Source: a virus
Direction: 5' to 3' (one strand)
Length of the DNA stretch: 28,567 bases
IMG/VR virus record: IMGVR_UViG_3300020401_000069
Coordinates: 1-28,567 of that record
Shown here one piece after another: positions 8,301-26,562 of this stretch. The notes under the pieces were generated by a model. The model saw only the letters and a program-made list of their open reading frames with translations. It ran no database searches and was not told where the DNA came from. Position 1 is the stretch's first letter, and every line of letters starts with the position of its first letter. Both the position numbers and the translations under genes were made by a program.

Positions 8301-11300
8301 TACTAAAAGTTATTAACACTATTCCTGCTTATGAGGACTTAGGTGCAGTAGCAAACGTATATTATGTTGCAACCAACGGAATAGATAATACTGACACAGG
8401 TAGAGGATTATCTGATTCAGCACCTTTCAAAACAGTAAAATATGCTTGTGATTACATCTTCCAAGATGAAGCAACTAGATCACCTGCAACAATTTTTGTT
8501 AAAACAGGAACTTACAAAGAACAACTTCCTATTAAAGTTCCGGCAGACGTTGCCATTGTTGGTGATGAACTGCGTTCAACTAGAATCGAACCATTAAGTA
8601 GTGCATTCGAAGATCAAGATATGTTTAGAGTGCGTAATGGTTGTGGTATTAGAAACATGACACTTGCCGGATTAAAAGGAAGTTTAGGAAGTCCAGACGG
8701 ATTACAAACAAAACGTGTAACAGGCGGTGCCTTTGTTGCACTTGATCCAGGCGATGGTCCAGGAGATACAAGTGTATGGATTACAAATAAATCAACCTAT
8801 GTACAAAATGTTTCAACGTTTGGTGAAGAATGTATAGGTTTAAGAATTGACGGTGACTTACATAATGGTGGTAACAAATCTGTTGTTGCTAATGACTTCA
8901 CACAAATTTTACAACAAGGTATTGGCTTCTGGTGTAGCGGTGAAGGTAAAGCAGAATTAGTATCAGTCTTTACATATTATTGTCATATAGGTTATCTATG
9001 TACTGACGGTGGTAAAGTTAGAGCAACAAATGGTAATAACTCATATGGTGACTTTGGATCAGTTGCGATAGGATTTGATCAAACTGAAAGTCCTATAACA
9101 GGTAAAGTAGACAACTATTCAAAAGAAGCAACAATTAGTCAAGTTTACAATGATGAAAACCAATTGTTTACAGTTGGATATAATAATGCAGGTAACCACT
9201 ATACTAATGGTACAGTAACAATTACTGGTTCAGGACAAAATGCCGCGGCTAAGATTACAGAATTTAGAGACAACGGTATTATGGAAGTACGTGTACTTGA
9301 TCCAGGTGATTCAAGTATAGCAGGTGGTGCCGGATATACTTTTGTCAACAACAGAGCACAACTTGGAGATAGTCTAAGTATAAACATAGCAAACTCTGAT
9401 ACACAAAATGAAACTTATTATCTAAACAAACTTTTAACTATTGTTGAAGGTGAAGGTAGAGGACAGTATGGTTACATTACAAGTTATGATTGGAACACAG
9501 GTGGAGTTATTTCAGGAACAGTAACAAGTGCCACTGACGCAGTTAGAGTTGAAGGTACTTACACAGGAAAAACAGGTACAAGTAGTAATGGACTTGCTAC
9601 TCCTCCAACAGTAACACTTACAGTTGATGCAACAGGTGACGTTACAGTTACAGTGACAGACGTAGGTAAAGATAACCTAGCAGATGATATTATAACTTAT
9701 ACAAACGTAGACTTTGGCGGACAAGGTGCTAACGTTACTTACAAAATTACATCTGTAAGTTTAGGTAACAAGAGAATGACCATAGCAAGACAGGCAGACG
9801 GCCTTGCTGGTTGGGAACACTTATTACCTGGACAACCTATTAAAACAGTTTTAGATGAAACAACAAGATATCAAATTACACCAAGAATTGACGTTTCAGA
9901 ACCGCCATACAATACTACTAACAACAACGCACCATCAGGTACTGATATCAAACAAATGGCATATCAAAAACTTGGTTCAAATAGATTGACAGTAGGAGTT
10001 GGTAACAATAGTATTATATGGACAACAGATGGTACAACTTGGAATAATGCAAACAGTTACACTAACTTACCATACGTTGCGGTTGCTCCAGGTAACAACT
10101 TCTTTGTAGCAATTGACAGTGCAGGTAACGTAAGAAAATCAGGTGATGGTACAAACTGGTCAAGTGCAGGAACACTACCAGCAGGTACATACAACAGTTT
10201 AGAGTATGGTGACGGATACCACGTTGCACTTGCAAACAGTGATTCAAATGCTTATGTTAGTACAAACAATGGAGACACATGGGCAACTGTGTCAGCAGGA
10301 TTTAGTAACGTCAAGTTCCTTGCTTACGGTAACGGAAAATGGATAGCAATGAACGAAGCAGGAGATACTTGGGAAAGTACTGATAATGCACAGACTTGGA
10401 CACAAGGTCCAGACTTAGGTAACGTACAATATGACGTTGCAAGTTTATGTTTTGGTAATGGTAGATTTGTAGCGGCGGCTTATGACTCACCAAATGATAT
10501 ATCAACTGTTAACAATAAATTCTTTTACAGTTTAACAAACAAAAGTACTGCGGCAGGTAACACAGTTTGGCTAATGGGTGAAGACACACCAGCGGCAGAT
10601 AATTTTTATGTTTCTTATGCACAAGGTGTATTTGTGGCTGTAAGTGCAAATGGTCAAGTATGTGTTTCTCCAGATGGTAATTTATGGGATAACAAATCTT
10701 CATTAGGCGGAGCATACAACGGAATATTTGCAGGAAGTTCAAGAACAGGTGGACCACAATTCTTTCCAACACAGAACGGAACAGTTTCACAAATAACAAC
10801 AATTGAATATGGTGCAAGAGCAAGAATTATTCCTCAGATTGTAAGTAACAGAATTAGTGAATTTACAATAGTTGAAGCAGGTTCTGGTTACACAGGATCA
10901 GCACCAACATTAAGCATTGTTGATCCAGACAAAACAGGCTCAGTGACTTATGAAGTTAGATTAGGCACAGGAGTTTTAGGTCCGGTAGAATTTACAAACA
11001 GAGGTACAGGATATCTTAACATTGGTGTTACAGTAACTGGTGATGGATACAAAGATGAATATCAACTAGGTGAAAAATTAATTGTTAAAGAATTATCAAG
11101 AGAACCAGGACCTGGTGATAACTTATACATTAATGAAATTAATGATGTAGTGTACAGCATTCAGTCAGTGGCAAACCTGCAAGGTTCAGAGCCAAACTTA
11201 ACTGCGGAATTGACTATAAGTCCAACACTAGACAGAGCAGAATCACCAAACCACGAAGAAACGTTTATCATTAGACAGAAATATTCGCAGGTTAGATTAA

Positions 11301-11972: not shown

Positions 11973-14900
11973 ATGGCAGAGTTTAAACTAGGTAGAATCA
12001 GATTTATATGGAAAGGTGCATGGGGAACCGGCACTCAATACTTTAAAGATGATGTTATTAGATATGGTGGACGTACATATATTTGTATTGTGGGCCACAC
12101 AGCCTCTGGCACATTTGAAGCAGATCAATCTACTAAATGGAACAACCTAGCAGACGGTCAAGAATGGAAAAGTGACTGGGCATTATCAACTGTTTACAAA
12201 CCAAATGACATTGTAAAATATGGAAGTTTACTTTATGTTTGTAATACAGGACATACTTCAGCATCATCAACAAGCGATGGATTAGAATTAGACCAATCAA
12301 AATGGGATCTATGGACAGAAGGTTTTGATTGGAAAGGTGTTTGGGGTGTTTCAACAAGATATAAAGTAAATGACATTGTTGCCTATGGTGGTGATTTATA
12401 TCTTTGTACTGAAAAACACACTTCGGCGGCTTCTACTTCAGATGGTTTAGAATTAGACAATGCGAAATGGGATACTTTTGCAAGAGGTCTTGAATGGAGA
12501 GGCAACTGGACAGCAACAACAAGATACAGAATTAATGATGTAATCAAGTACGGTGGACAAGTTTATGTTTGTAACGCAGGTCATACTGCCGCGGCTACAA
12601 ATGCTTTAGGTTTAGAAGCAAATCAATCAAACTGGGATTCATTACACAAAGGAATTGATTACAAAGGCAACTGGGCAACAACTACTAGATATAAAATTAA
12701 TGATTTAGTTAAGTATGGTGGAGACATTTGGATTTGTACAACTTTCCATACTTCTACAACAACACTTGCCGCAGATGAAAGTAACTGGGCAATATTTGTT
12801 CCAGGATTAGAATTTGAAGATAGTTGGCAAAATAATGTAAACTATCAACCAGGTGACGTTGTTACTTATGGTGGATATAGTTATATTTCTAAAACTAATA
12901 ACTATGCGGCGACTCCGTTTAACAATACTTCAAACTGGGATTTATTTACAACAGGATTTAGTTTAAAAGGTGATTACAATAACACTACAAATTATAAAGT
13001 AGGTGATGTTGTAAGAGTTGGTGGTTGGACTTACTTGGCAATCGCTGATGGTGTTGGTAACAGACCACCAGACAATACAAAATGGGATAAACTTAACCAA
13101 GGCTTCTATTGGAAGAACACTTGGACAAATGGTGCATACTATGACAAAGGTGATACTGTTAGAGGTATCAATAATATTAACTCTTATGTTTGTGTACTTG
13201 AACATACAGCGGATCAAGTTACTGCACAGAATAGACCAGACCAAGACTTATCAGGAACTTATTGGAACTTATTAAGTGGCGGTGTTGAATCAGGAAACTT
13301 AACAACACGTGGTGACCTTGTTTACTACGGTGGTGCTGGTCCAACAAGACTTGCTATTGGTTCACCAGGACAAGTATTAAAAGTTAACGATGCTGGAACA
13401 GATCCAGTTTGGGCATATTTTGGACAGATAGAAGCAGTTTATTATGTAGCACCTACAGGAGTAGATGAAGAAGTTCCTGCTTATGGTGTAACAATTGATA
13501 AACCATTTAAGACAGTACAGTTTGGTTTACAACAGATTGAAAAGGGTGCTAGAAAACCTTATGCAACACAACTTCTTAGAAGAAACAAAGCATTTATTGT
13601 TGCAGAAACTTTAGCATGGGTTGATAGACAGATTTCAACTAACGCAAGTCCATTTAGTGCGGCATTCACTTATACTGCTAGTGATTGGTCAAGAGATTTA
13701 AGACATCTATTAGATGGTGTAGAATTTGATTTAAGTCATGGCGGTAACAGAAAATCAAGACAAGTTGCATTAAACTTCTTTAGATCAAATTCATTTAGTT
13801 ATTATGTAACAAACAGTTCACTTACAACAGAGTGGGCGGCAATGTTAGCATACATGAAAACATTGATTGATGATGTGTTGACACAAAATACGCCAAGCAC
13901 AAATTATCAAACATTAATGAGTGTTTCTCCTGCAACGTTACAAATTAAAAACGCGGCAATTACTGAAGAGGTAGGCGGACAAGCAGTAGTAGAAAGCCTT
14001 ATAGATATTTCAAGAAATGCTATTGTATCAAACAGTGCAACAAGCACAACTTATAATGTTACAGCGGCAACTTATGACGGTGCTACTGGAGATATGGATT
14101 TAACTATTGGTTCTCATAGTTTAGCAGTTAACACAAAAATTGTTATAAAAACAGGCAGTTTAACATTTACTTGTGATAAAGATAATAACGTATCACAAAA
14201 ATCATACCCAAGAACAACTGACCCAGCATACGTTACTCCGATTTCAATTACAAGCACAACAGGCACAACAATTAGAGTAAACGTTGGTAAAAATCCAGAC
14301 GGAAATTATGCTCACACATTTGTAAGTGCAACAGCAGGTGCAGTTTCATTAGCAAGTGGCGGCGGTATTCCAGCAGAGATTGTAGCAAATGATACACTAT
14401 TTGTTAAAACAGGAACTTTCCCAGAAGTACTTCCAATGGTAATTCCAGAAAGTTGTGCAGTAGTAGGTGACGAACTACGTTCTACTAAAATTACACCAGC
14501 AGGTCAATTAACAAGTTCAGACGATACTGCATTTAGTTTGTATGGTATTCTTCATATGAAATCAATCATTGATAATATCATTCTTAATACAAGTATTACA
14601 AAACAAACAAACAATCCTTTGACACAGGATACTGCACACCCGGCAGGTGATGCCGCGGCTGTTACAAAAGCAGAAGCAGTTGTTGATGCAATACATGATT
14701 ACATCAACTACAATGTTATTAGTGATTCAACAGCAGTAAACCCAACTATGTCAGGACAAATGAGTCCAAACCAAGAGTTAGGTGTTAAAAATGCTATTTT
14801 AAGATTAGAAGAAAACAAAGATTTTATTGCAGAAGATGTAACAAATTACATTTTAAATACATTCCCAGGATACACTTCATTTGATGCAACTGCTCAAGCG

Positions 14901-17396
14901 GCTTGTAAGAGAGACGTAAGAAGATATGTAGAAGCAGTACAGCATGATATTCTTTACGATGGAACATACATGGCAATCAGAGCAGGTAGACTTTATGCAA
15001 ATAGTGTAAGTGGTTCTACACAAGAAAATATGTTCTTTGTAAGAAACGGTACAGGTATTAGAAACATGACTGTAAGTGGATTAAGTGGATCACTTGGAGT
15101 TGCAAACTCATTTGGTACTAAACGTCCAAGTGCAGGTGCTTATGTATCGTTGGATCCAGGTTGGGGACCAGCACACGAAGATGTGTGGGTCAAAAACAAA
15201 TCTTGTTATGTACAAAACGTAACAACATTTGGTACAGGATGTATTGGATTAAAAATTGACGGTGACCTACACGCAGGTGGTAATGACTCGGTTGTTGCTA
15301 ACGACTTTACACAGGTACTATCAGATGGTATAGGTGTATGGGTAACAAACTTAGGTAGATCAGAACTTGTTTCCGTGTTCTCATATTATGGTCACATAGG
15401 TTATCTTGCAGAAAACGGCGGTAAAATTAGAGCAACAAACGGTAACTCATCATATGGTGATTTTGGTTGTGTTGCGGAAGGTGTTGATGCAACAGAAACA
15501 CCTATCACAGGATTTGTAGATAACAAAGCAGGTCAGGCAACAGTTGCAAACGTAACTACTGACGGTGAAAGAGTGTTAACATTAGAATACCTAAATGCTG
15601 GACGAGATTATGATCTTGGAGGTGGAACTGCAAACATAGCCATTACAGGTGAAGGTTACAACTTGGGTACTGTGGCTCCTGTTTATAGAACAGGTGGTGT
15701 GATGGAAGTTAGAATGCTTGAAACACAAACAAGTCCAAGTAACTTAGGTGGTGCTGATTATAAATTTGTAAGTAACAACGCACAGATTGGTAACGCAACA
15801 CAGATAACAATTTCAAACACGGATACTAACCCATCAGGTGCATTAGTAGGATTAGGAATCTTTATTAAAGCGGGTCTTGGTGCAGGTCAGTATGCTTACA
15901 TTGACACATATAACTCAGGAACAAAAGTTGCGACAGTCAGAAAATATTCAGACGGTCAACCAGGTTGGGATCACTTACTTGGTGAAAGTATTTTGAATTT
16001 ACTTGACAGTACAACTGCATATGAAATTGAACCAAGAATTACTTTTGCGGCACCAGTTGGTGATGGTTCAAGTTCAAGCATTACTGCATTAGGAAGAGCA
16101 ACAGTTGTTGATGGAAAAATTACACAGATTAGAATTTGGGAACCTGGACAAGGATATTTAACTCCTCCAGCAATTACAATTACTGATCCGAATAATACAG
16201 TAGACGCACCAACGCAAGTTAGAATTGGTGATGGTGTACTTGCACAGCCTACTTACACAGGTGGAACAAATGCAGGTAGAGGACAAGCATTTGAAACTGC
16301 AAGTGCTACGGTTACAACAACATTAACTGAAACAAACATCACAGGCATTACTTTAAACAATCCAATTAGAGTAACAGCAAGTGGTGGACATACAGTTCAA
16401 CAAGGTGCAAAAGTTAAAATTTCAGAAGTTGTAGGTACAATACAAGTAAATGATAATACTTACTTTGCAAAAGTTATTGATGCAAATAATATAGATTTAT
16501 TTAGAGATCCTGATTTGAACGATGGTATTGATGGCACATTAAGTGGTGCATACGGAAGTTATCTATCAGGTGGTAAATTAAAATACGGTGGTGGATTTAG
16601 AGATCAATTCCAATCAGGACAATATGTAGATGTCGTTGGAATGGCTAATAAACCAGTAGCAGGTTCAAACGTACAGTTCTCAAACATTAGTGGTACTGTG
16701 TTTAAACTTGTAAGTGTTACAAACTTAATTGGTCAAGGACCATACAGTGCAACACTTCAAGTATCGCCGAACGTTGCTGTAAGTGATGCTCCTGCACACT
16801 TCCAAGATACAACAATTAGAATTAGATATTCACAAGTTAGATTAACAGGACATGACTTCTTAGATATTGGTACTGGTAACTTTGCAAGTACTAACTATCC
16901 AAACATTCCATTACAGAATCCTATTCCAGCAAATGAGACTAGAGAGCGTGATGGAGGAAGAGTGTTCTTTACTTCAACTGACCAAGATGGTAACTTTAGA
17001 GTTGGCGGGTTATTTACAGTTGAGCAGAGTACTGGAGTTGCGACCCTAAATGCAGATGCATTTAATATTAGCGGTCTACAAGAATTATCACTAGGATCTG
17101 TAGCATTAGGATCAACAGGTGCAACTATTAATGAGTTCAGCACTGACGGATCATTTGCGGCTAACAGTGATAGTATAGTGCCAACACAAAAAGCAATTAA
17201 AACATATATCACATCACAAATTGGTGGTGGTGCTTCCACATTGAACGTTAACCAGATAACTGCTGGTTTAGTACAAATTTCCGGTCAGGAAATTACTACA
17301 ACAACAGTTGTTCCGATCAATGTAAACGCAACTATGAACTTCAAGGGTGGAGTTGATGGTACGCCGGTTGCACTAAATATGTTTTTAATGGGATAA
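11973..17396 (+). CDS. Giant tail-fibre/adhesin (1807 aa), paralog of the 2206-aa protein
   Basis: The N-terminus ('MAEFKLGRIRF') is nearly identical to that of the protein at 5303. Eight CBM5/12-like repeats follow (about residues 10-415). Cys-x3-His is present in units 1-5 and 8 (C38/H42, C90/H94, C145/H149, C200/H204, C255/H259, C407/H411) and absent from units 6 and 7, exactly as in the paralog. The beta-helix (from about 489 to 1165; 'GDELRSTKITP', 'GIRNMTVSGL') is interrupted twice. Each insert holds a helical unit of the form 'NKxFIxxE...RDxRxxxxxxxxDxxxxG' (about 530-610 and 943-1010). The first insert also holds a beta-module (694-783) shared with the gene at 28107. The end carries 'GHDFLDIG', 'TSTDQDGNFRVGGLF', 'VPTQKAIKTYI' and 'FLMG'. 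Cupredoxin and propeller domains are absent. Likely a trimeric host-recognition fibre. Confidence 0.85.
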   Translation: MAEFKLGRIRFIWKGAWGTGTQYFKDDVIRYGGRTYICIVGHTASGTFEADQSTKWNNLADGQEWKSDWALSTVYKPNDIVKYGSLLYVCNTGHTSASSTSDGLELDQSKWDLWTEGFDWKGVWGVSTRYKVNDIVAYGGDLYLCTEKHTSAASTSDGLELDNAKWDTFARGLEWRGNWTATTRYRINDVIKYGGQVYVCNAGHTAAATNALGLEANQSNWDSLHKGIDYKGNWATTTRYKINDLVKYGGDIWICTTFHTSTTTLAADESNWAIFVPGLEFEDSWQNNVNYQPGDVVTYGGYSYISKTNNYAATPFNNTSNWDLFTTGFSLKGDYNNTTNYKVGDVVRVGGWTYLAIADGVGNRPPDNTKWDKLNQGFYWKNTWTNGAYYDKGDTVRGINNINSYVCVLEHTADQVTAQNRPDQDLSGTYWNLLSGGVESGNLTTRGDLVYYGGAGPTRLAIGSPGQVLKVNDAGTDPVWAYFGQIEAVYYVAPTGVDEEVPAYGVTIDKPFKTVQFGLQQIEKGARKPYATQLLRRNKAFIVAETLAWVDRQISTNASPFSAAFTYTASDWSRDLRHLLDGVEFDLSHGGNRKSRQVALNFFRSNSFSYYVTNSSLTTEWAAMLAYMKTLIDDVLTQNTPSTNYQTLMSVSPATLQIKNAAITEEVGGQAVVESLIDISRNAIVSNSATSTTYNVTAATYDGATGDMDLTIGSHSLAVNTKIVIKTGSLTFTCDKDNNVSQKSYPRTTDPAYVTPISITSTTGTTIRVNVGKNPDGNYAHTFVSATAGAVSLASGGGIPAEIVANDTLFVKTGTFPEVLPMVIPESCAVVGDELRSTKITPAGQLTSSDDTAFSLYGILHMKSIIDNIILNTSITKQTNNPLTQDTAHPAGDAAAVTKAEAVVDAIHDYINYNVISDSTAVNPTMSGQMSPNQELGVKNAILRLEENKDFIAEDVTNYILNTFPGYTSFDATAQAACKRDVRRYVEAVQHDILYDGTYMAIRAGRLYANSVSGSTQENMFFVRNGTGIRNMTVSGLSGSLGVANSFGTKRPSAGAYVSLDPGWGPAHEDVWVKNKSCYVQNVTTFGTGCIGLKIDGDLHAGGNDSVVANDFTQVLSDGIGVWVTNLGRSELVSVFSYYGHIGYLAENGGKIRATNGNSSYGDFGCVAEGVDATETPITGFVDNKAGQATVANVTTDGERVLTLEYLNAGRDYDLGGGTANIAITGEGYNLGTVAPVYRTGGVMEVRMLETQTSPSNLGGADYKFVSNNAQIGNATQITISNTDTNPSGALVGLGIFIKAGLGAGQYAYIDTYNSGTKVATVRKYSDGQPGWDHLLGESILNLLDSTTAYEIEPRITFAAPVGDGSSSSITALGRATVVDGKITQIRIWEPGQGYLTPPAITITDPNNTVDAPTQVRIGDGVLAQPTYTGGTNAGRGQAFETASATVTTTLTETNITGITLNNPIRVTASGGHTVQQGAKVKISEVVGTIQVNDNTYFAKVIDANNIDLFRDPDLNDGIDGTLSGAYGSYLSGGKLKYGGGFRDQFQSGQYVDVVGMANKPVAGSNVQFSNISGTVFKLVSVTNLIGQGPYSATLQVSPNVAVSDAPAHFQDTTIRIRYSQVRLTGHDFLDIGTGNFASTNYPNIPLQNPIPANETRERDGGRVFFTSTDQDGNFRVGGLFTVEQSTGVATLNADAFNISGLQELSLGSVALGSTGATINEFSTDGSFAANSDSIVPTQKAIKTYITSQIGGGASTLNVNQITAGLVQISGQEITTTTVVPINVNATMNFKGGVDGTPVALNMFLMG
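12162..12656 (+). repeat. Three tandem 165-nt coding repeats
   Basis: Units start at 12162, 12327 and 12492, each exactly 55 codons, with Cys at unit residue 27 and His at residue 31 every time. A fourth unit (from 12657) is four codons shorter. Flanking units are more diverged, so the exact-length core is probably the most recently amplified part of the eight-unit array. Confidence 0.8.
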
Positions 17397-17409: not shown

Positions 17410-17727
17410 ATGGCAACAGGAAGACTAGGCGCCGCAGATTTAGCCGCAGGCACGAATACCACTGTATATACAGTTCCCGCATCAACTTACGGAGTTGTTA
17501 CGTGTTCGGTGTGTAATAGAGGTAACAGTGCTATTTCGGTCAGAATGGCGGTTGCAGTGAATGATACACCTACAAATGGCGAATACATTGAGTACGATGT
17601 AGAAGTTTTAGCCAAGGGTGTGTTAGAGAGATCTGGTATCGTTATGGATGCTGGTAAGAAATTGGTAGTGTACTCATCTGCCGTTAACGTAAGTGCCGTT
17701 GTTTTCGGAATTGAAACAACAGCATAA
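17410..17727 (+). CDS. Small virion structural protein
   Basis: A 105-aa beta-rich protein. The start 'MATGRLGAADLAAGTNTTVY' and the blocks 'TYGVVTCSVCNRGN', 'EYIEYDVEVLAKGVLERSG' and 'KKLVVYSSA' are a recurrent signature of small structural proteins in marine T4-like phages. I know of no experimentally assigned role. Fourteen nt separate it from the giant fibre gene, with AAGGAG 8 nt before the ATG, so it is probably co-transcribed with that gene and made alongside it. It may be a distant relative of the product at 2614. Confidence 0.8.
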   Translation: MATGRLGAADLAAGTNTTVYTVPASTYGVVTCSVCNRGNSAISVRMAVAVNDTPTNGEYIEYDVEVLAKGVLERSGIVMDAGKKLVVYSSAVNVSAVVFGIETTA

Positions 17728-17762: not shown

Positions 17763-18089
17763 ATGGGAAGATATATAACAACCACAGGAACAGCAAGTAC
17801 AGTTGTTAAAGAAGTCAACTCTACGTATCAATCAGTAGTAAATGACAGAATTCTTTGTACAACTGGCGGGTTCACTATTACACTTCCTCTTTCTACGTCT
17901 TTGTTAGTTAACGACACCGTACAAATCATTGATGTAACTGGTGTTGCTAACTCACAGAACATCACGATAGCGAGAAACGGTGCAAAAATACAGAACCTTG
18001 CAGAAAATTTAGTACTTGACGTCAACAACGTTGCAATTACACTGATTTACACAGGTGCAACTTACGGTTGGGTCATAAGTGGAACGTAA
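17763..18089 (+). CDS. Small fibre-tip-like beta protein
   Basis: A 108-aa protein. Its layout ('DRILCTTGGFTITLPLS', 'VNDTVQIIDVTG', 'NITIARNGAKIQ', 'LIYTGATYGWVI') is that of a small beta-domain often found at the ends of phage fibres or as a stand-alone fibre-associated protein in marine phages. It pairs a 'GxFTITLP' strand with an 'NITIxxNGxxI' strand and ends in an aromatic 'W-x-I'. The first gene after the TATAAATA at 17730, it has an AAGGG Shine-Dalgarno and leads the operon of Cys-rich proteins. A role at the distal fibre is inferred. Confidence 0.75.
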   Translation: MGRYITTTGTASTVVKEVNSTYQSVVNDRILCTTGGFTITLPLSTSLLVNDTVQIIDVTGVANSQNITIARNGAKIQNLAENLVLDVNNVAITLIYTGATYGWVISGT

Positions 18090-18110: not shown

Positions 18111-18842
18111 ATGTCATCATTAAGAGCATTTTTAAATGACGTAGCGCCAATCAAGGGTGGTGTCACTCAACAGGTTTGGATCTACAGAAAAGATGATAAC
18201 ATAGGTAACGGCGGTAGATGTTGCTTATGGACCGTACCTACCGGAAAAATAAACGTCACATTTGAACTATGGGGCGGCGGCGGAGGCGGCGGTGGCGGAT
18301 GCTGTTGTCAGTTTCCAAATAGACCAGCCTCTGGTGGAGCATACGCGATAAGAACAGTCCAAACAACAGCAGGAAATCAATATACGGTTTGTGCTGGTGG
18401 TTCTACTCCTTGTTGTTGTCACGGATGTTTAGGTGGTGACGGTTATCCAAGTTTTGTTACAGGCTCAAGTATTCCAACAACGTGTGCACCGGGTGGTTGC
18501 GGTGGCAAACAATGTTGCTTTACTGATGCTTACACTTGTCATCCAAGTTTCGTATATAGTTGCGGAACAGGTGATTGGGGACTTCCAAGAGTAACTGGAA
18601 GTGCAAAAAGATCTCAGTACTGTCACAATCAAATGTGGACATGGACTGGTGGTACACCAATATTTGGTGGACAAAGAAAAAGTAAAGACTGGTGTGCAGG
18701 TAACTTTACAAACACGGGATCGTGTTTTAGTTGTCTAGCAGAATTCCCAGGCGGTGGTGGAGGCTCAGGTGCGGCCTGTGGTAATCCATGCTGTTGGGGA
18801 GGCTGGGGACAAGCCGGCGCAGTCAAAATATCGTATAGTTAG
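18111..18842 (+). CDS. Gly-rich, Cys-rich tail adhesin-like protein, copy 1
   Basis: A 243-aa protein with 23 cysteines (9.5% of residues), many in clusters: 'GGRCCLW' (about 36), 'GGGCCCQF' (about 64), 'PCCCHGC' (about 100) and 'NPCCWGG' near the end. The framework 'WTVPTGKINVTFELWGGGGG' matches the glycine-rich domain seen in phage receptor-binding proteins, and a second Gly run ('FPGGGGGSG') sits near the C-terminus. This recalls the polyglycine II adhesin fold of T4-like gp38 proteins, but Cys-richness at this level is not part of the gp38 description I know. No signal peptide. It is a paralog of 19560 and 20310. The neighbouring assembly chaperones suggest a fibre-tip adhesin. Disulfide or metal binding by the cysteines is inferred. 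AGGAG lies upstream of the ATG. Confidence 0.8.
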   Translation: MSSLRAFLNDVAPIKGGVTQQVWIYRKDDNIGNGGRCCLWTVPTGKINVTFELWGGGGGGGGGCCCQFPNRPASGGAYAIRTVQTTAGNQYTVCAGGSTPCCCHGCLGGDGYPSFVTGSSIPTTCAPGGCGGKQCCFTDAYTCHPSFVYSCGTGDWGLPRVTGSAKRSQYCHNQMWTWTGGTPIFGGQRKSKDWCAGNFTNTGSCFSCLAEFPGGGGGSGAACGNPCCWGGWGQAGAVKISYS

Positions 18843-18865
18843 AAAGGGAATAGGAGACTTAAATT

Positions 18866-19558
18866 ATGCCAAATACTATAATTGAAAAAGACTTTACCTA
18901 TAATATCCCTGATGATTATCTGGCGCAGACTAACAACGACAATAAAACTGCTGAGGCGACTTTTAAAGGCCCGGATAAGATTTGGATATTTGTAGATAAA
19001 GATACAGGCAAGTCTACTAGAAGTAGATTATTGCTTACAGAAGAGGAGAACGGAGCAGACTTTCCAACTCCTGAAGATCAGTTTAAAATCGAAGTTGATT
19101 GTGCAACTGATCCTACAATATGTTCTTTATGGGATACAACTGAATGGGAAACTGTTAAAAATCAAACTCAACTAGTAGTGGATTTGCCAGATGGAACTAC
19201 TTATGAGAGACCAGAACCAACAGATGTTGATCATACATATGAATTAGATGATTGTGTTTATAACATGGACGGAACATTGTCAGCAGATGGTACAACTTAC
19301 ACAGGTGGTACTTGGACAATGGCTTGGAAACAACCTTGGAGTTCATGGGATGAACTAATCCTAGTAAGAAACAATTTGCTTACTGGATCTGATGCCAAAA
19401 TTGCAGAAGATATGCCAGAAGCAACAAAAACAGTATGGAAAGAATACAGACAAAAGTTGAGAGACTTACCTGCTACTTTTAAAAGAGGTACAGCAGAAGA
19501 GTTTCCAGCACACATGGTAAACTTTCCAGTAGAACCAGGCGCGGATTTAGGAGAATAA
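18866..19558 (+). CDS. Tail-fibre assembly chaperone-like protein, copy 1
   Basis: A 230-aa acidic protein. Residues of about 157-205 match the phage tail assembly chaperone pattern: Trp-rich lead-in, 'RNNLLTGSDAKIAEDMP', then 'WKEYRQKLRDLPA' (known form: RN-x-LL-x-x-(S/T)D...DxP...W-x-x-YRQ-x-LRDLP). The N-terminal domain has 'GPDKIWIFVDKDTGK' and 'VDCATDPTICSLW', both shared with the protein at 21048, including two conserved cysteines. Such chaperones help fibres or adhesins fold and are normally encoded just after their client. Here it lies between Cys-rich adhesins 1 and 2. Clients are inferred from position. AGGAG precedes the ATG. Confidence 0.82.
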   Translation: MPNTIIEKDFTYNIPDDYLAQTNNDNKTAEATFKGPDKIWIFVDKDTGKSTRSRLLLTEEENGADFPTPEDQFKIEVDCATDPTICSLWDTTEWETVKNQTQLVVDLPDGTTYERPEPTDVDHTYELDDCVYNMDGTLSADGTTYTGGTWTMAWKQPWSSWDELILVRNNLLTGSDAKIAEDMPEATKTVWKEYRQKLRDLPATFKRGTAEEFPAHMVNFPVEPGADLGE

Positions 19559-19559
19559 G

Positions 19560-20300
19560 ATGGCCTCATTAAGGACATTATTACAGTACGGTACTAGTTC
19601 AGCAGGGTCTGATCCATTAAGAAGTTTGCGAGTTTATAATACAAGTATTACAAGTGCAAACAATGGCGGACAATGTTGTCAGTGGACTGCACCTACAGGA
19701 GTTACTTGGGTCGCTTTCGAAATTTGGGGAGGCGGTGGACCAGGTGCTGGTGTATGTTGTTGCCAACAAGGTTGGGCCGGCGGTAGTGGTTCTTATGCAA
19801 GACGTATTATTACAGCGTCAGCAGGTGATCAATTTACTTTATGTGCGGCAGGTAGTACTTGCTGTCACTCAAGATGTTATCCATGCAGAGGATTTCCTAG
19901 TTACGTATGTGGACCAGGCGGATTCTGTATGTGTGTATCCGGTGGAGCGGAAACGGCTTCTAAATGTTTTTGGAGTCAAGGATGTTCTTACTCAGGATGT
20001 CAACAATTTAATTGCGGTTGTGTAAATGGTGGTACATTATCATTCTGTGGTACAACAGGTGGCGGACATGGTTCTTCACACTGTGCCTCTGATATGCACC
20101 AGTTTATACCAAGTGCACCTTTAACAGCACCAACTAGAATGTCTAGAAACGGTTGCTACAAAACACACGGACAAGATCATGGAGATCATGGTGTGTTCCC
20201 AGGAGGTGGTGGTGCATCAGGTGTAACACACAACGAAACTTGTTATTGCGGAGCGAAAGGAATGGGCGGTTTAGTAACACTTTACTTTGCACACCCATAA
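19560..20300 (+). CDS. Gly-rich, Cys-rich tail adhesin-like protein, copy 2
   Basis: A 246-aa paralog of 18111 and 20310, again with 23 cysteines. The N-half keeps the common frame: 'NNGGQCCQW', 'FEIWGGGGPGAGVCCCQQG', 'FTLCAAGSTCC'. The C-half (about residues 105-200) has its own Cys spacing ('GGFCMC', 'CSYSGC', 'FNCGC'), then a His-rich stretch ('HGQDHGDHG') and the closing 'FPGGGGASG'. The divergent middle with conserved ends is what one expects of an adhesin whose tip determines specificity. The ATG follows the chaperone stop after one base, with AGGAG inside the end of the chaperone gene, so the two are tightly coupled. Confidence 0.8.
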   Translation: MASLRTLLQYGTSSAGSDPLRSLRVYNTSITSANNGGQCCQWTAPTGVTWVAFEIWGGGGPGAGVCCCQQGWAGGSGSYARRIITASAGDQFTLCAAGSTCCHSRCYPCRGFPSYVCGPGGFCMCVSGGAETASKCFWSQGCSYSGCQQFNCGCVNGGTLSFCGTTGGGHGSSHCASDMHQFIPSAPLTAPTRMSRNGCYKTHGQDHGDHGVFPGGGGASGVTHNETCYCGAKGMGGLVTLYFAHP

Positions 20301-20309
20301 GGAGAAGTT

Positions 20310-21032
20310 ATGAGTACATTAAGACAATTTTTATTTGGATATGCAGAAGAAAAATCTGTTCCTCAAGAACTTGCAGTATATAACACTTCAACAACTTCTG
20401 TAAACAACGGAGGTAGATGTTGTCTATGGACTGTTCCTGCAGGAACTAGTTACGCAATATTTGAATTATGGGGCGGTGGTGCTTCAGGAGATGGTGCTTG
20501 TTGTTGTCAAATGGGATATCCATCAACATCAGGATCATACGGACAAAAAGCATTAACAGTAGAGGCTGGACAACAAATGACAATTTGTGCGGCTGGAACT
20601 ACTTGTTGTAGACAAAAAGGAAACTGTCAACAAGGTTATGACACTTATGTATGTAGATCAGGTAACTGGTGTGCAAGAGCCTGTGGCGGTAGAGTTATGC
20701 GTACAGAATGTTTCATGTATAGAACGTGTTATTCATGTTGTAGAATGGAATATTGTGTACACGGATATTCAGGTATGGACTTTGGTTTAGGTGCTACGCA
20801 GGCATCTTCACAGTTAAGTCAATACTGTCATGATAGAGGTAATATGTATGTAACACAAAACGTTGCACAAGGATCACCAAGAAACGGACCTAACGGTTGT
20901 TGTGCTTGGGGTGGATCACAAGGCTTTGGACTATTTCCAGGTGGTGGCGGAATGTCAGCACAGGTATTTGGCGAGCCATGTTGTTGTGGATCACCAGGCG
21001 GTGGTGGACTAGTGTACGTGGTGTACTATTAA
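20310..21032 (+). CDS. Gly-rich, Cys-rich tail adhesin-like protein, copy 3
   Basis: A 240-aa protein and third paralog, with 23 cysteines. Its frame is 'NNGGRCCLWTVPAG', 'FELWGGGASGDGACCCQMG', 'MTICAAGTTCC', a divergent Cys-rich middle ('YVCRSGNWCARACGG', 'YSCCRMEYC'), then 'FPGGGGMS' and 'EPCCCGSPGGGG'. It is closer to copy 1 in the WTVP/ELWGGG region, but its start 'MSTLRQFLFG' and its length are its own. AAGGAG lies before the ATG and there are nine nt to the previous stop. It is followed by chaperone 2, which probably assists it. No catalytic motif. Confidence 0.8.
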   Translation: MSTLRQFLFGYAEEKSVPQELAVYNTSTTSVNNGGRCCLWTVPAGTSYAIFELWGGGASGDGACCCQMGYPSTSGSYGQKALTVEAGQQMTICAAGTTCCRQKGNCQQGYDTYVCRSGNWCARACGGRVMRTECFMYRTCYSCCRMEYCVHGYSGMDFGLGATQASSQLSQYCHDRGNMYVTQNVAQGSPRNGPNGCCAWGGSQGFGLFPGGGGMSAQVFGEPCCCGSPGGGGLVYVVYY

Positions 21033-21047
21033 GGATAGGTAAGAGAT

Positions 21048-21995
21048 ATGGCATTTAAACAAATTACATTTAACTACCCTAAACCAGATGAGTATCTAGG
21101 TCAGTTTGATAACGAACAACTTCAAGGAACACATACTTATGATGGTCCAGAAGATATGTGGATTTTCGTTGACAAAGAAACTAAAAAATTGGCTCCTAGT
21201 GCTTACATGGAATACGATGAAGGGTTAGATTTTCAACCAGCACCGCATTTAGAAAAAGTGTATGTTGATTGTGATGAACATCCTATTATTTGTGCTTTAC
21301 AAGAATGTGATTTTGAAGATGAACAATTAGAACAAATTACAGAAACATTACCAAATGGATCACAATACTTAACTTACAAAGATCCACCACCAGAACACAC
21401 TTACGAAAAGTTTGACATTGAATATGACTTTGATGCTAAAACATTTAAGAAAGTAGCAAGTTCTATAGAAGGTGGACGTGAACATTATCCTTGGAAACAA
21501 CCTCATGTGAAATGGCCACACGTAAGAAAACACAGAAATTCATTACTAGCAGGTACTGATCACAAAGTTAAAAGTGATATGCCAACTGATTTATCAACTG
21601 CATGGTCAACTTTTAGACAAGAATTAAGAGATCTTCCTGTAAAATATGGAGACAGTTTTGATGCTGAAATAACAGCGGCTGGATCAGGTTATTCAGTAGA
21701 TGACGAATTAAGTTTTGCAAAAGCAGATTTAGGAGACTATATAACTGCTGATGCTATGAAAGTTACTGTTACAACTGTTGACGGTAGTGGTGCTATTACA
21801 GGCATTAAACTATCAAACAACCAAGCGATTAATGACGGTAACGATATTGTTATAGGTAGAGAAGCAAAAGAATATGCTGATGCTACATATACAACTTCAA
21901 GTGCAGGTACTGGTGCTAAATTTAAAATACATAAGTGCCAAAGATATGCGGCTTGGAAAGTCCTTTATCCTAGTTCCCCTTGCGGAACAATTTAA
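21048..21995 (+). CDS. Tail-fibre assembly chaperone-like protein, copy 2, with extra domain
   Basis: A 315-aa paralog of the protein at 18866. Shared features are 'GPEDMWIFVDKETKK', 'VDCDEHPIICAL' and the chaperone core at about 155-202 ('RNSLLAGTDHKVKSDMP', 'WSTFRQELRDLP'). After 'RDLPVKYG' it departs: about 90 residues of beta-rich sequence ('ITAAGSGYSVDDELSF', 'GSGAITGIKLSNN', 'GTGAKFKI') resemble the 'GSGYxxxxxxxx' beta-modules of fibre proteins, followed by a short tail ('WKVLYPSSP') that looks like the resumed chaperone C-terminus. This suggests that a fibre module was inserted into the chaperone. It ends the operon, 19 nt before the terminator hairpin. Confidence 0.8.
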   Translation: MAFKQITFNYPKPDEYLGQFDNEQLQGTHTYDGPEDMWIFVDKETKKLAPSAYMEYDEGLDFQPAPHLEKVYVDCDEHPIICALQECDFEDEQLEQITETLPNGSQYLTYKDPPPEHTYEKFDIEYDFDAKTFKKVASSIEGGREHYPWKQPHVKWPHVRKHRNSLLAGTDHKVKSDMPTDLSTAWSTFRQELRDLPVKYGDSFDAEITAAGSGYSVDDELSFAKADLGDYITADAMKVTVTTVDGSGAITGIKLSNNQAINDGNDIVIGREAKEYADATYTTSSAGTGAKFKIHKCQRYAAWKVLYPSSPCGTI

Positions 21996-22055: not shown

Positions 22056-22868
22056 ATGCAAACACAAGAACGTCCACCAGTAAGATTCGCAGGCTTACAG
22101 ATGCCTGTAACACAGGAATTACATAAAAATAAAGAAGTAATTTCTGATTGTTTAGATTGGTGTAAAGAAAATAAAGTAAATTGGTTAATTACTCCTGAAG
22201 GATCTCTTACAGGATATTTTCCTAATTTTGATTTAGTTGCAGAAGGTGGCGTTACAGGAATACAATCAGCGGCAACAGAACTTGTTGGAAAAGCACAAGG
22301 TCTTGGAATTGGATTAGCATTAGGCACACTTTGGGTAGACGTAGAACATAGAGGCGCTATAAGAAAAAATCAAATAAGGTATTATGATCCAGAAGGATTA
22401 TTTTTAGGTGCAACAAATAAGCAATACATTGTAGGAGGTCAAGATAGTCCTAGTAGTAGTTGGGATCAAGTATTAGCAGACCCACCAGGAACTATAAAAA
22501 CACATTATTGTAATGGTATTAGAACAACCGGAATGATTTGTAATGATTTTTGGGGAAATGGATTTAGGTTCAATGCTCCATCTTTACCAATGTTAGCAAG
22601 TATGCATAATGTAGAACTAATTTTACACAGCACAAACGGAGATAGAGGTAACGATCAAGATGAGATTTGGATGGAATGGCATGACATACATCTAAGAATG
22701 ATGAGTTTACAATACGGCATACCTATTATCACTGTTGATAGTTGTTGCGACAAGTACGGTAATAGACATGATTTACCTACAAGTAGTCCAAGCGGAGTAG
22801 TTATTAACGGCAAATGGGAAGTACAAATGCCAAGAACCGGAACTCAGATGTTCTACTGGGATTTCTAA
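22056..22868 (+). CDS. Nitrilase-superfamily amidohydrolase
   Basis: A 270-aa carbon-nitrogen hydrolase. The Glu-Lys-Cys triad is readable: E48 in 'LITPEGSLTGY', K122 in 'ATNKQYIVGG' and C162 in 'GMICNDFWG'. The N-terminal strand 'VRFAGLQMPVTQ' and the final 'SSPSGVVINGKW' strand fit the family, and 270 aa is its usual length. These enzymes hydrolyse amides, nitriles or carbamoyl-amides in the cytosol; the substrate cannot be read here. A phage copy is unusual. It begins a cassette with a glycosyltransferase, an SGNH-like protein and a carbamoyltransferase, so a nitrogen-bearing sugar or metabolite is a reasonable guess. No Shine-Dalgarno is visible at ATG 22056. The next in-frame ATG (22101) would cut off the first beta-strand. 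Confidence 0.85.
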   Translation: MQTQERPPVRFAGLQMPVTQELHKNKEVISDCLDWCKENKVNWLITPEGSLTGYFPNFDLVAEGGVTGIQSAATELVGKAQGLGIGLALGTLWVDVEHRGAIRKNQIRYYDPEGLFLGATNKQYIVGGQDSPSSSWDQVLADPPGTIKTHYCNGIRTTGMICNDFWGNGFRFNAPSLPMLASMHNVELILHSTNGDRGNDQDEIWMEWHDIHLRMMSLQYGIPIITVDSCCDKYGNRHDLPTSSPSGVVINGKWEVQMPRTGTQMFYWDF

Positions 22869-22871
22869 ATA
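22864..22871 (+). promoter_or_regulatory. Weak late-promoter-like site (TCTAAATA)
   Basis: TCTAAATA overlaps the stop codon of the amidohydrolase gene and lies 29 nt before the ATG at 22901. It keeps the TAAATA core but not the first bases, so it is only tentative. Confidence 0.3.
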
Positions 22872-22900
22872 AGTATCTATATCAAAGGAAATATTAACAA

Positions 22901-23866
22901 ATGACAGATAAAAGAAGTACAGCAATTTTTATTAATGGTGGAGCAGGAAGGACAATATCAAGCATTCCAGCATTAGAAAAATTTAGAGAAGAAAATCCAG
23001 ACGATGATTTTGTAATTGTTTGCGAAGGCGGAACGGATTTTTATAAAGGACATCCTGATCTTTTTAACAGGACATATGATGTTTGGCATAAAAATTTATT
23101 CCAAGATAAATTAAAAGATAGAAATTTATTAACACCTGAACCATATAGAGTCTGGGAATATTACAATCAAAAGTGTAACCTACATGAAGCATATGATATT
23201 GCTATTAATAATAAAGGTGTAAGAGAACTTCCTAAACCTACTATTAAATTATCCATGCAAGAAAAAATGACAGGTAAGAAACTTATTGATGAAGTAAAAC
23301 AAAAAACAGGTAAAGATAAAATTATTGTATTCCAATCCTTTGGTAGAGGTACTATAAACGACAATGGCATCATCGGAGATCCATCAGGAAGAAGTTTTGA
23401 AGCAGAGAACACTGTCAATCTCGTAAACAAACTTTCTAAACACTTTGGTGTAATCTTCATGAGTGAAATCGCTATTGAATTTCAAAAGCACGGAGTAAAA
23501 GAACCAATTGCAATACCACAAAACATTGAATTACGTTTCTGGTTAGGTATTATAAATGAAGCAGATTATTTCTTAGGTTGCGATAGTGTAGGACAACATA
23601 TGGCTTATGCATTAGAAAAACCTGCAACAGTAGTAGTTGGAAGTACATTTAAAGAAAATATTTCTTACCCAGATACAAAAAACTTTGATGTATTAGATAT
23701 GGGTGAAGGTGCTAGAGTCTACAGTCCAATAAGAATAACAATGGACGAATTATCAGACAGAACTAATGAAGGTATTATGTGGATGAATGATAAGATAGAA
23801 GAAGTAATTGTTGAAAGTTGCTTGAAAGGTGCTGGACTCAAGAAGGATGACAAAAAGAAAAAGTAG
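22901..23866 (+). CDS. GT9-like (heptosyltransferase-type) glycosyltransferase
   Basis: A 321-aa GT-B-type protein. The N-terminal domain opens with 'AIFINGGAGRTISSIPALEKF', which corresponds to the 'GDxxxSxPxLxxL' start of ADP-heptose:LPS heptosyltransferases (GT9). 'YFLGCDSVGQHMAYAL' followed by 'PATVVVGST' matches the C-terminal donor-site block (DSGxxHxAxAxxxPxVxxxG). The length fits the family. It would transfer a sugar from a nucleotide donor to a glycan or protein; donor and acceptor are unknown. The C-terminus is very Lys-rich ('KKDDKKKK'), which may help association with membrane or acidic partners. AAAGGAA precedes the ATG. The end overlaps the next gene. With the carbamoyltransferase it suggests a glycan-decorating pathway. 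Confidence 0.75.
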   Translation: MTDKRSTAIFINGGAGRTISSIPALEKFREENPDDDFVIVCEGGTDFYKGHPDLFNRTYDVWHKNLFQDKLKDRNLLTPEPYRVWEYYNQKCNLHEAYDIAINNKGVRELPKPTIKLSMQEKMTGKKLIDEVKQKTGKDKIIVFQSFGRGTINDNGIIGDPSGRSFEAENTVNLVNKLSKHFGVIFMSEIAIEFQKHGVKEPIAIPQNIELRFWLGIINEADYFLGCDSVGQHMAYALEKPATVVVGSTFKENISYPDTKNFDVLDMGEGARVYSPIRITMDELSDRTNEGIMWMNDKIEEVIVESCLKGAGLKKDDKKKK

Positions 23867-24746
23867 ACTTTTCGTTTTTGGTTGTAGTTTTACAATGTAT
23901 GCGTGGCCAACGTATGCAGATTTCTTAGGATACGAATTCGATCATTATGAGAACTGGGGATTTCCTGGTTTAGGTAACCGTGCGATAGCAGAAAGAGTTG
24001 CCGAGTGTCACATAAAAAATAACTTTACAGAAGATGATACAGTAATTGTGCAGTGGAGTACGCACATAAGAAATGACTGGCACACGTTTAAAAGAAGTAA
24101 CCTACAACGCGGAGATGCAATTAGAAATACAGAAGATATCGGTTGGAAAACAAAAGGTAGTATTTTTAATTACATGAATAGAGAAAATTGTTATGATGAT
24201 AAATGGATAGAAACTTTTTGGGACGAACATAGTTATTTCATGCATGGACAAAATGCAATAATACTTACGCAAGGATTATTAGAAAGTACACATTGCACTT
24301 ATAGAATGTTAAGCATAGGTGATATGGAAAAGTTAGGAACAGATATGCCTGACTTTCCTGGCTTTGGAGAAACAACACAAAAAGAAGTTGATGTGTACAA
24401 AGACAAAACAGAATTACAAGTATATAAAAACATAGATAAATCTAAATGGTTAGAACCTTTAGGTTTGTTTGCGTGGAAAAATAAAGAACAACAATACACT
24501 TTTTATGACCCTAACACTAAAAAAGATTGGGTAGAAATGCACCCAAGTCATTGGCAACATTACAAATATTTAAATGAAGTGGTGCGTCCAAGTTTGGGTC
24601 TTAAAGACAAAAATAACGATAAACAAGTTAGTACACTTAATACTTTAGATAAACTTAAAGATGAAAATAAGGACCTTTTAAGTTTTGAAAAAGGTATATT
24701 AGATAACATTGTAGAATATAAGCATATAGGATATTTAGGATTTTAA
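23847..24746 (+). CDS. SGNH-hydrolase-like protein
   Basis: About 299 aa from ATG 23847 (overlap of 20 nt with the previous gene). A GTG six codons upstream (23829) is possible, but homologous sequence starts only after the ATG. 'LFVFGCSFTMY' gives the Ser of block I (G-x-S). 'NWGFPGLGN' fits the Gly of block II. 'VQWSTHIRND' takes the place of block III. 'MHPSHWQHYKYL' resembles the block V His region, with His rather than the usual Asp before HP. The family includes esterases, lipases and carbohydrate O-acetyl-modifying enzymes. With the Asp/Asn positions altered, activity is uncertain. Context suggests glycan O-acyl editing. One nt separates it from the carbamoyltransferase. Confidence 0.62.
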   Translation: MTKRKSRLFVFGCSFTMYAWPTYADFLGYEFDHYENWGFPGLGNRAIAERVAECHIKNNFTEDDTVIVQWSTHIRNDWHTFKRSNLQRGDAIRNTEDIGWKTKGSIFNYMNRENCYDDKWIETFWDEHSYFMHGQNAIILTQGLLESTHCTYRMLSIGDMEKLGTDMPDFPGFGETTQKEVDVYKDKTELQVYKNIDKSKWLEPLGLFAWKNKEQQYTFYDPNTKKDWVEMHPSHWQHYKYLNEVVRPSLGLKDKNNDKQVSTLNTLDKLKDENKDLLSFEKGILDNIVEYKHIGYLGF

Positions 24747-24747
24747 T

Positions 24748-26562
24748 ATGAAAAAACCAAGTCAGTGGATAGCCGCAATAGCCAGAGGACATAACGCAGG
24801 AGTGTGTTTACTTAAAGATGGTAAGGTTGTGTTTTCTATAGAAGAAGAAAGATTAAGCAGACACAAATATGATGGTGGTCCATATGCTTCTATGATGAAG
24901 ATTTTAGATTACACAGATAAACTAGACTATCTTGTAATTGCACATACACAAAGTTTAGATGCAACAGCAGGCAGAGTAGACTTTACCGGAGATGATGTGT
25001 ACACTGGATTAGCACGTAAGATGGGATTAATAGATCGTAATCCTAAATTACTTCCTAAACATCCACAGGTTGTTGACCTAAGTTACTTCCATCACAAGTT
25101 ACACGCCGCTTTAAGTTTTTACAACAGTGGATTTGAAGATGCAGTAGCGGTTATTGTTGATGGAGCAGGAACCTTCTTTAGTGCAAACATGGGAGGTGAT
25201 CCAAACAATAACACTACACTATGGGAAACAGAAACTATTTTTGACTGCGAATATCCTGTAGACTTTAAAACTTTATATAAACATTTAGGAACCACAGGTC
25301 CTTTACTTGGCGCAGAATATCAAAACTTTAGTGGAGACTTTTTTGCAGAAAAAGATAATGTTCCTGAAATTGTAATCAGTGAAACAGCAGGGATAGTAAA
25401 AACTTATGAAGCAGTTACAGACTATTGTGGATTTAGTTTCATCGAAGCAGGAAAAACTATGGGATTATTTCCTTATGGTGAACATCCAAAAGAAGTTCCA
25501 GCATTGTTTACAAAAGGACAAACACATCCTTTAAGTGATAGAAATGTTATCATTCCAACTTATCCAAATGGAGCACTTGTAAATAGAAATTATTTTGAAT
25601 TTTTAAGAGATAGACAAGATCAAGAAGAAGATGTTACAAAATTAAAGAATAGAAGAGATATGGCTTATGCTGTACAAACACAAACACAAGAACAAGTTAC
25701 AAATTTAATTAGAAAAGCAGTAGCAATGACAGGTAAAAAGAATGTTGTGTTAAGCGGAGGATATGGACTTAACTGTGTTGCAAATTATCATTACCTAGAA
25801 GCATTAAGAAATGAAGGTATTAATTTATATGTTGAACCTGTAAGCAATGATGCAGGAACGGCCATGGGTGCGGCATTACTACAATATAGAACAATCACAA
25901 GAGATAGAACAATAAATGATCAAGTTGATACACTTTACAACGGTCCTACATACGAATATAATGAAAATCAGTTTAAAGAATTAGCAGAGAAGTATGAAGC
26001 AAAAATAGATGACGAAATAGACAACGATTCTATTGTAGAATTGTTAAGAAATAAAAACATTGTTGCTATTTTCCAAGGCGGAAGTGAAAATGGGCCTAGA
26101 GCATTAGGAAATAGAAGTTTATTATTTGATCCTAGTTACAAAGACGGCAAAGATTATGTTAACAAAGTAAAACGTAGAGAATATTTTAGACCTTTTGCAG
26201 GAACTATATTAGAAGAAGATGTGCATGAATGGTTTGATTTGCGAGGTATGAAAAGTTCACCTACAATGATGTATGCTGTAAACTGTCAACCCGGTATTGC
26301 TGAAAAGATTCCAAGCATTATTCACGTTGATGGAACTTGCAGAATACAAACTGTTAATGAAAAACAGAACAAAAATTACTATGATTTAATCAAAGCATTC
26401 AAGGAAAAAACAGGACTTCCAATAGTATTCAACACTTCCTTTAATTTAGGTGGAGATCCACTGGTAGAAACACTGGAAGATGCACTACATACCCTAGCAA
26501 AAAGCGACATAGAATACCTATATTTGCCTGAATACAAGACATTGTTTACAATTTCTAACTAG
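24748..26562 (+). CDS. Carbamoyltransferase, NodU/CmcH family
   Basis: A full-length 604-aa protein. The N-terminal Kae1-like ASKHA domain shows 'GHNAGVCLLKDGKVVFSIEE' (about 14-33), metal-ligand type His115/His116/His119 in 'FHHKLHAAL', 'VDGAGT' (138-142), 'LSGGYGLNCVAN' (about 335) and 'SNDAGTAMGAAL' (about 366). The C-terminal YrdC-like part has 'GSENGPRALGNRSLLFDP' (about 445), 'KRREYFRPFAG' and 'FNTSFNLGGDPLVETLEDAL' (about 561). These are the family's diagnostic blocks, so it is probably active. The family moves a carbamoyl group from carbamoyl phosphate, via carbamoyl-AMP, onto a hydroxyl, often of a sugar. Co-directional and nearly overlapping with the SGNH-like and GT9-like genes, it may carbamoylate a sugar on the virion or host envelope. 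Its acceptor is unknown. Confidence 0.92.
   Translation: MKKPSQWIAAIARGHNAGVCLLKDGKVVFSIEEERLSRHKYDGGPYASMMKILDYTDKLDYLVIAHTQSLDATAGRVDFTGDDVYTGLARKMGLIDRNPKLLPKHPQVVDLSYFHHKLHAALSFYNSGFEDAVAVIVDGAGTFFSANMGGDPNNNTTLWETETIFDCEYPVDFKTLYKHLGTTGPLLGAEYQNFSGDFFAEKDNVPEIVISETAGIVKTYEAVTDYCGFSFIEAGKTMGLFPYGEHPKEVPALFTKGQTHPLSDRNVIIPTYPNGALVNRNYFEFLRDRQDQEEDVTKLKNRRDMAYAVQTQTQEQVTNLIRKAVAMTGKKNVVLSGGYGLNCVANYHYLEALRNEGINLYVEPVSNDAGTAMGAALLQYRTITRDRTINDQVDTLYNGPTYEYNENQFKELAEKYEAKIDDEIDNDSIVELLRNKNIVAIFQGGSENGPRALGNRSLLFDPSYKDGKDYVNKVKRREYFRPFAGTILEEDVHEWFDLRGMKSSPTMMYAVNCQPGIAEKIPSIIHVDGTCRIQTVNEKQNKNYYDLIKAFKEKTGLPIVFNTSFNLGGDPLVETLEDALHTLAKSDIEYLYLPEYKTLFTISN

What the first reader, a model, noticed from the sequence alone, without database searches (positions are those of the whole stretch)
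18111..21032. Three paralogous Gly-rich adhesins, each with exactly 23 cysteines
The products at 18111, 19560 and 20310 are 243, 246 and 240 aa and I count 23 Cys in each (about 9.5%). The first eight or so align (CC, CCC, C, CC). In the C-half the positions differ, yet the total is the same. Phage structural proteins assemble in a reducing cytosol and are usually Cys-poor. A conserved Cys budget despite rearranged positions suggests selection for a disulfide- or metal-stabilised core, perhaps one that locks after release into oxidising seawater. The gp38-like Gly-rich framework combined with Cys clusters does not match any adhesin class I know.
Basis: partly seen in the sequence, partly recalled or inferred. 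Interest (0 to 1): 0.82.

Follow-up and report, generated by a model that had tools for sequence, protein, structure and literature searches.

The report
Triplet of cysteine-rich phage fibre-tip proteins
Three neighbouring genes of an uncultured aquatic virus encode related, unusually cysteine-rich and glycine-rich proteins that most likely cap a tail fibre and grip the host; the shared count of 23 cysteines is a coincidence of this one lineage, but the cysteines themselves, and the fact that relatives always carry exactly three such genes in the same layout, are strongly conserved.

Summary
Proteins A (18111), B (19560) and C (20310) each have exactly 23 Cys (9.3-9.6%, against 0.8% in the window's other genes). 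The "fixed Cys budget" reading fails: across 149 distinct full-length relatives the count runs from 17 to 32, and only 3 of 72 triads have equal counts. What holds is stronger. Cys is the most conserved residue in the family. Within the window's own clade 69 of 71 Cys columns are invariant despite TGT/TGC switching. Every complete locus has the order A - chaperone - B - C - chaperone. All 16 whole contigs (up to 268 kb) have exactly three copies, and A, B and C are three separate clades. Cyanophages S-SSM7, Sf-FS3 and S-CAM1 carry more distant Cys-rich triads; the S-SSM7/Sf-FS3 one looks like a separate triplication. The AlphaFold2 model of A matches the TNF-like/glycine-rich fibre of cyanophage Pam3 and, weakly, the ALK/LTK glycine-rich domain. 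Best reading: chaperone-matured fibre-tip adhesins of the glycine-rich-domain kind, in a Cys-rich variant, probably disulfide-stabilised after release (inferred). One heterotrimeric A/B/C tip is plausible but untested. Tests for paired Cys gain or loss and for even counts were negative.

The parts
18111..18842 (+). A: Cys/Gly-rich fibre-tip adhesin (243 aa, 23 Cys)
   Evidence: phrog_4205 E 1.2e-30; PF21722 Gly_rich_2 30.2 bits against cut-off 24.3; AF2 pLDDT 79, pTM 0.78; Foldseek to Pam3 fibre 7ypx E 8.5e-7
18866..19558 (+). t1: tail-fibre assembly chaperone (230 aa) between A and B
   Evidence: PF16778 Phage_tail_APC 37.6 bits against 26.6; phrog_9740, phrog_4912; AF2 pLDDT 94.5, no PDB fold match
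19560..20300 (+). B: Cys/Gly-rich fibre-tip adhesin (246 aa, 23 Cys)
   Evidence: phrog_4205 E 1.2e-29; clade B
20310..21032 (+). C: Cys/Gly-rich fibre-tip adhesin (240 aa, 23 Cys)
   Evidence: phrog_4205 E 1.4e-25; clade C
21048..21995 (+). t2: second tail-fibre assembly chaperone (315 aa) with an extra domain at about residues 205-294
   Evidence: PF16778 33.3 bits against 26.6; phrog_9740 E 2.6e-22
11973..17396 (+). Long tail fibre (1807 aa) upstream, the presumed carrier of the tip
   Evidence: phrog_9851 tail fiber E 3.6e-213; CBM_5_12 repeats; a long fibre gene lies at the same position relative to the tip genes in S-SSM7, P-SSM2 and Sf-FS3
17410..17727 (+). Small fibre-associated protein (105 aa)
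   Evidence: phrog_11338 tail fiber E 1e-9; similar protein at the same place in P-SSM2 and S-CAM1, by eye
17763..18089 (+). Small fibre-associated protein (108 aa)
   Evidence: phrog_31104 and several tail-protein families; similar protein at the same place in S-CAM1, by eye

Best explanation
A, B and C are receptor-binding tip proteins of a long tail fibre, built on the TNF-like plus glycine-rich-domain (polyglycine-helix lattice) fold of the Pam3 fibre and folded with the help of Tfa/gp25-like chaperones t1 and t2. The many Cys are individually fixed positions of a Cys-rich sublineage of this fold. Their most likely role is to cross-link the glycine-rich core and its loops by disulfides, formed late or after release from the reducing cytosol. 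Shown: sequence, selection on Cys, layout, strict three-copy rule, fold similarity of A, chaperone homology. Inferred: tip position, receptor binding, disulfides and their timing.
For: Fold: the model of A hits the Pam3 fibre (7ypx E 8.5e-7, 7yfw 1.4e-5), the Bxb1 tail tip and, more weakly, ALK/LTK glycine-rich domains, plus many viral glycine-rich proteins including P-SSM2 and S-CAM3. [quoted passage not shown] Neighbours: long fibre upstream, two PF16778 chaperones, order G-t-G-G-t in 71 of 71 complete loci. Cys: 80% conserved between orthologs of 40-60% identity, against Gly 68% and Trp 53%; 69 of 71 Cys columns invariant in the window clade against about 65-70% of all columns, with 41 of those switching TGT/TGC.
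Against: Foldseek TM-scores are moderate (0.53; rmsd 5.6 A), and B and C were not modelled. The Pam3 N-terminal helical shaft is absent. No coordinates were available, so Cys-Cys distances could not be measured. There is no excess of paired Cys changes and no even-number preference. No proteomic evidence places these proteins in virions. S16 gp38 was not among the 50 listed PDB matches. The chaperone model has no PDB match.
Confidence: 0.6

Rival explanations
1. A, B and C together make one heterotrimeric tip (one chain each), as C1q uses A, B and C chains, with the shared N-terminal motif (M-x-x-L-R-x-x-L) docking each chain on the end of the trimeric fibre. (A refinement of the best explanation rather than its opposite.)
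For: Exactly three copies in 16 of 16 whole contigs; fixed order in 71 of 71 complete loci; three clean clades A, B, C; S-SSM7/Sf-FS3 carry their own, phylogenetically separate triad and S-CAM1 also has three; the fold class trimerises in Pam3; precedent: three consecutive virophage DSLV2 tail proteins form a 1:1:1 heterotrimer (PMC12724248).
Confidence: 0.35
2. A, B and C are three separate adhesins (each homotrimeric or monomeric, on the same or different fibres) that widen or layer receptor recognition.
For: Low identity between slots (35-39%) allows different targets; the window has two long fibres (5303 and 11973) that could carry different tips; P-SSM2 manages with two.
Against: A free repertoire should show copy-number change, swapping between slots or loss; none is seen in 72 triads. 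No marked hypervariable loop segments in the window clade.
Confidence: 0.35
3. The Cys clusters bind metal or Fe-S clusters rather than forming disulfides.
For: CC, CCC and CxC clusters; assembly in a reducing cytosol.
Against: His is the least conserved residue (15%); no known metal-binding family hit; clusters differ between slots and isolates.
Confidence: 0.1
4. The number 23 itself is selected (a fixed Cys budget).
For: Exactly 23 in A, B and C of the window.
Against: Range 17-32 in relatives; 3 of 72 triads equal; near relatives are 24/23/23 and 24/23/24 through single substitutions (residue 89 in A, residue 110 in C).
Confidence: 0.01

Closest known systems
Cyanophage Pam3 tail fibre gp24 and chaperone gp25 (PDB 7YPX; PMC9608196)
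   Same: Predicted TNF-like plus glycine-rich fold; chaperone gene next door; fibre protein of a myovirus
   Different: Pam3 gp24 has a long N-terminal helical shaft, is one gene and a homotrimer; the window has three paralogs, two larger chaperones and 9.5% Cys; no sequence match to any PDB chain
gp38 adhesin of T2/S16-like phages (polyglycine type II sandwich)
   Same: Gly-rich distal protein encoded downstream of a long fibre; short N-terminal part
   Different: Described as a gp38 at the tip of a gp37 trimer (PMC12892980); S16 gp38 not in the listed fold matches; Gly-rich proteins of this general kind can be Cys-poor, such as Syn9 gp38 with 2 Cys
P-SSM2 PSSM2_304/306, S-SSM7 SSSM7_114-116, Sf-FS3 and S-CAM1 hypothetical proteins; phrog_4205
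   Same: Distant relatives: Gly-rich, 25-36 Cys, same place after the long fibre, chaperone-like gene alongside
   Different: Only about 36-46% identity over about half the length; two or three copies with different chaperone placement; no named function
Virophage DSLV2 heterotrimeric tail proteins (PMC12724248)
   Same: Three consecutive related tail proteins, conserved as a trio
   Different: gp37-like fold; homology to the window proteins not tested
ALK/LTK glycine-rich (TG) domains
   Same: Weak fold match (E 2e-3 to 1e-1)
   Different: Animal receptor kinases; structural analogy only

Membership tests
phrog_4205 (unknown function) | Profile match over most of the protein | tested here: met
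   A 1.2e-30, B 1.2e-29, C 1.4e-25, over profile positions 37-285 of 287
PF21722 Gly_rich_2 | Score above the gathering cut-off | tested here: inconclusive
   A 30.2 bits against 24.3; B and C give no match
Pam3 gp24-type fibre | TNF-like plus glycine-rich fold | tested here: met
   Foldseek E 8.5e-7, probability 1.00, TM 0.53 for A; B and C not modelled
Pam3 gp24-type fibre | Long N-terminal helical bundle that docks on the baseplate | tested here: not met
   Model of A has only helix 4-7 and strands from residue 20
Pam3 gp24-type fibre | Homotrimer with chaperone at 3:3 | not testable with these tools
   No complex prediction or biochemistry available
S16/T2 gp38 adhesin | Polyglycine type II sandwich tip | tested here: inconclusive
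   Gly-rich motifs present; S16 gp38 not among the 50 listed PDB matches, though Pam3 gp24 itself resembles it (PMC9608196)
S16/T2 gp38 adhesin | Encoded downstream of the distal long fibre | tested here: met
   Fibre 11973-17396, then two small genes, then A
PF16778 Phage_tail_APC chaperone (t1, t2) | Score above the gathering cut-off | tested here: met
   37.6 and 33.3 bits against 26.6

The most novel reading that the evidence does not exclude
A, B and C form an obligate three-chain (C1q-like) receptor-binding tip, covalently locked by inter- and intra-chain disulfides that form only after the virion leaves the reducing cell, a design reached more than once in aquatic T4-superfamily phages.
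Probability: 0.2. Interest if true: 0.75.

Novelty: new variant of a known kind. Interest (0 to 1): 0.5.

Why it matters
Fibre tips decide which host a phage can infect. In the relatives found here, tips with about 10% Cys are kept in threes, with two chaperones, without exception. That offers a testable case of redox-dependent maturation of a phage adhesin and of a hetero-oligomeric fibre tip. It also suggests a function for hypothetical proteins of P-SSM2, S-SSM7 and S-CAM1.

Tried and rejected
Fixed budget of 23 Cys: rejected. Paired Cys gain/loss as a disulfide signature: 3 column pairs against 2.7 +/- 1.8 expected, net change even on 40 branches and odd on 49, so no signal. Simple Cys co-occurrence (C65-C136 phi 0.80) was not counted because the tree-aware test was negative. 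Sequence search of the PDB with A and with the family profile: nothing. Chaperone fold in the PDB: nothing at E <= 0.001. Cellular genomes: one weak locus in a MAG contig labelled Euryarchaeota, not followed up. Overlapping 123-aa ORF in the +1 frame of B (19654-20025): shortened in several near relatives (L002, L009, L012, L017, L019, L020), so a composition artefact. Host as a cyanobacterium: not supported; no psbA in 16 contigs and no chlorophyll-binding (Chloroa_b-bind) match in the three longest. Literature: no paper on Cys-rich cyanophage fibre tips in the held library. The PNAS paper on the Pam3 virion, which I recall as reporting disulfide-attached fibres, is not held, so it is not used as evidence.

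Full report
Observation. ORFs at 18111-18842, 19560-20300 and 20310-21032 encode proteins of 243, 246 and 240 aa with exactly 23 Cys each. The window's other genes average 0.78% Cys, so such a content is not chance (P about 6e-18 per protein). Identity of B and C to A is 35% and 38%.

The number. A profile of the three found 75 loci in IMG/VR, with 149 distinct full-length relatives of 17 to 32 Cys. Of 72 complete triads only three have equal counts, all in the window's own clade; independent draws predict about 2%. Near relatives are 24/23/23 and 24/23/24, through single substitutions (residue 89 in A, residue 110 in C). The shared 23 is therefore a coincidence.

The cysteines. They are nevertheless the most conserved residue: 80% retained between orthologs of 40-60% identity, against Gly 68% and Trp 53%. 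In the window's clade 69 of 71 Cys columns are invariant, while 156/243, 171/246 and 167/240 of all columns are, and 41 of those 69 use both TGT and TGC. Each slot has 14-15 Cys columns kept in at least 80% of diverse members. A tree-based test found no excess of paired Cys changes and no parity preference, so a fixed all-paired monomer network is not demonstrated. Variable Cys come and go singly.

Layout. Every complete locus has the order G-t-G-G-t, where t is a PF16778/phrog_9740-type tail-fibre chaperone (71 of 71; one more locus is cut off). Sixteen whole contigs of up to 268 kb contain exactly three copies. A, B and C are each one clade (bootstrap/SH-aLRT 94/92, 97/93, 85/93), so the triplication predates these phages. 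The Synechococcus phages S-SSM7 and Sf-FS3 have a triad of 25-30 Cys per protein followed by a chaperone; these six form their own clade (100/100), separate from A, B and C, which suggests an independent triplication, although gene conversion is an alternative. S-CAM1 has three (36, 31, 25 Cys). P-SSM2 has two (36, 36 Cys) with a smaller gene between them in the chaperone position. Syn9 has Gly-rich proteins of similar kind with few Cys (8 and 2), so Cys-richness is a property of a subset.

Fold. The AlphaFold2 model of A (pLDDT 79, pTM 0.78) matches the Pam3 fibre (7ypx), the Bxb1 tail tip, and less strongly the ALK/LTK glycine-rich domains. In Pam3 the fibre protein gp24 consists of a helical shaft, a TNF-like domain and a glycine-rich domain, forms a trimer, and needs chaperone gp25 at 3:3; the authors compare it with S16 gp38 and with ALK (PMC9608196). 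The window proteins lack the helical shaft and instead begin with a short motif M-x-x-L-R-x-x-L, which could dock them to the 1807-aa fibre encoded upstream (inference). The chaperone model is confident (94.5) but has no PDB match.

Mechanism. Most likely these are chaperone-matured tip adhesins whose glycine-rich core and loops are cross-linked by Cys, with oxidation after assembly or release (inferred). Whether the three chains form one heterotrimer or three separate tips is open. The invariant count of three and the apparently independent triads favour the first; P-SSM2's two copies and the homotrimer of Pam3 are against it. A biochemical precedent for a trio of consecutive tail proteins forming a 1:1:1 trimer is virophage DSLV2 (PMC12724248).

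Host. The relatives belong to the T4 superfamily, but the terminase of the 268-kb contig is nearest to PA5oct-like Pseudomonas phages (about 53%), while the baseplate protein of the window is nearest to Prochlorococcus phages (43%), and psbA was not found in 16 contigs. The host of the window phage is therefore unknown. The habitat 'seawater' is not established from the window itself; marine origin is suggested only by the related cyanophages (inference).

Noticed in passing
21048-21995: The second chaperone carries an extra domain (about residues 205-294, sub-threshold similarity to Gp18_dom_I and a match to phrog_6005) before its conserved C-terminal end; in relatives this slot mostly runs from about 200 to 496 aa, while slot 1 stays at 212-260 aa.
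   Followed up: partly
19654-20025: A 123-aa ORF overlaps gene B in the +1 frame, but is shortened in several near relatives, so it is likely a by-product of Gly/Cys codons.
   Followed up: yes
5303-11923 and 11973-17396: Two very long tail fibres (2206 and 1807 aa) with similar N-termini; CBM_5_12-type repeats were found in the second, the first was not scanned.
   Followed up: no
22056-26562: Accessory genes: a possible nitrilase-like protein (by eye; phrog_36475), a conserved unknown (phrog_8954) and a Nol-like carbamoyltransferase (phrog_1601). A carbamoyltransferase follows the tip genes in S-SSM7, P-SSM2, Sf-FS3 and S-CAM1 too.
   Followed up: no
L082: One weak relative lies in a MAG contig labelled Euryarchaeota, possibly a viral contig binned with it.
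   Followed up: no
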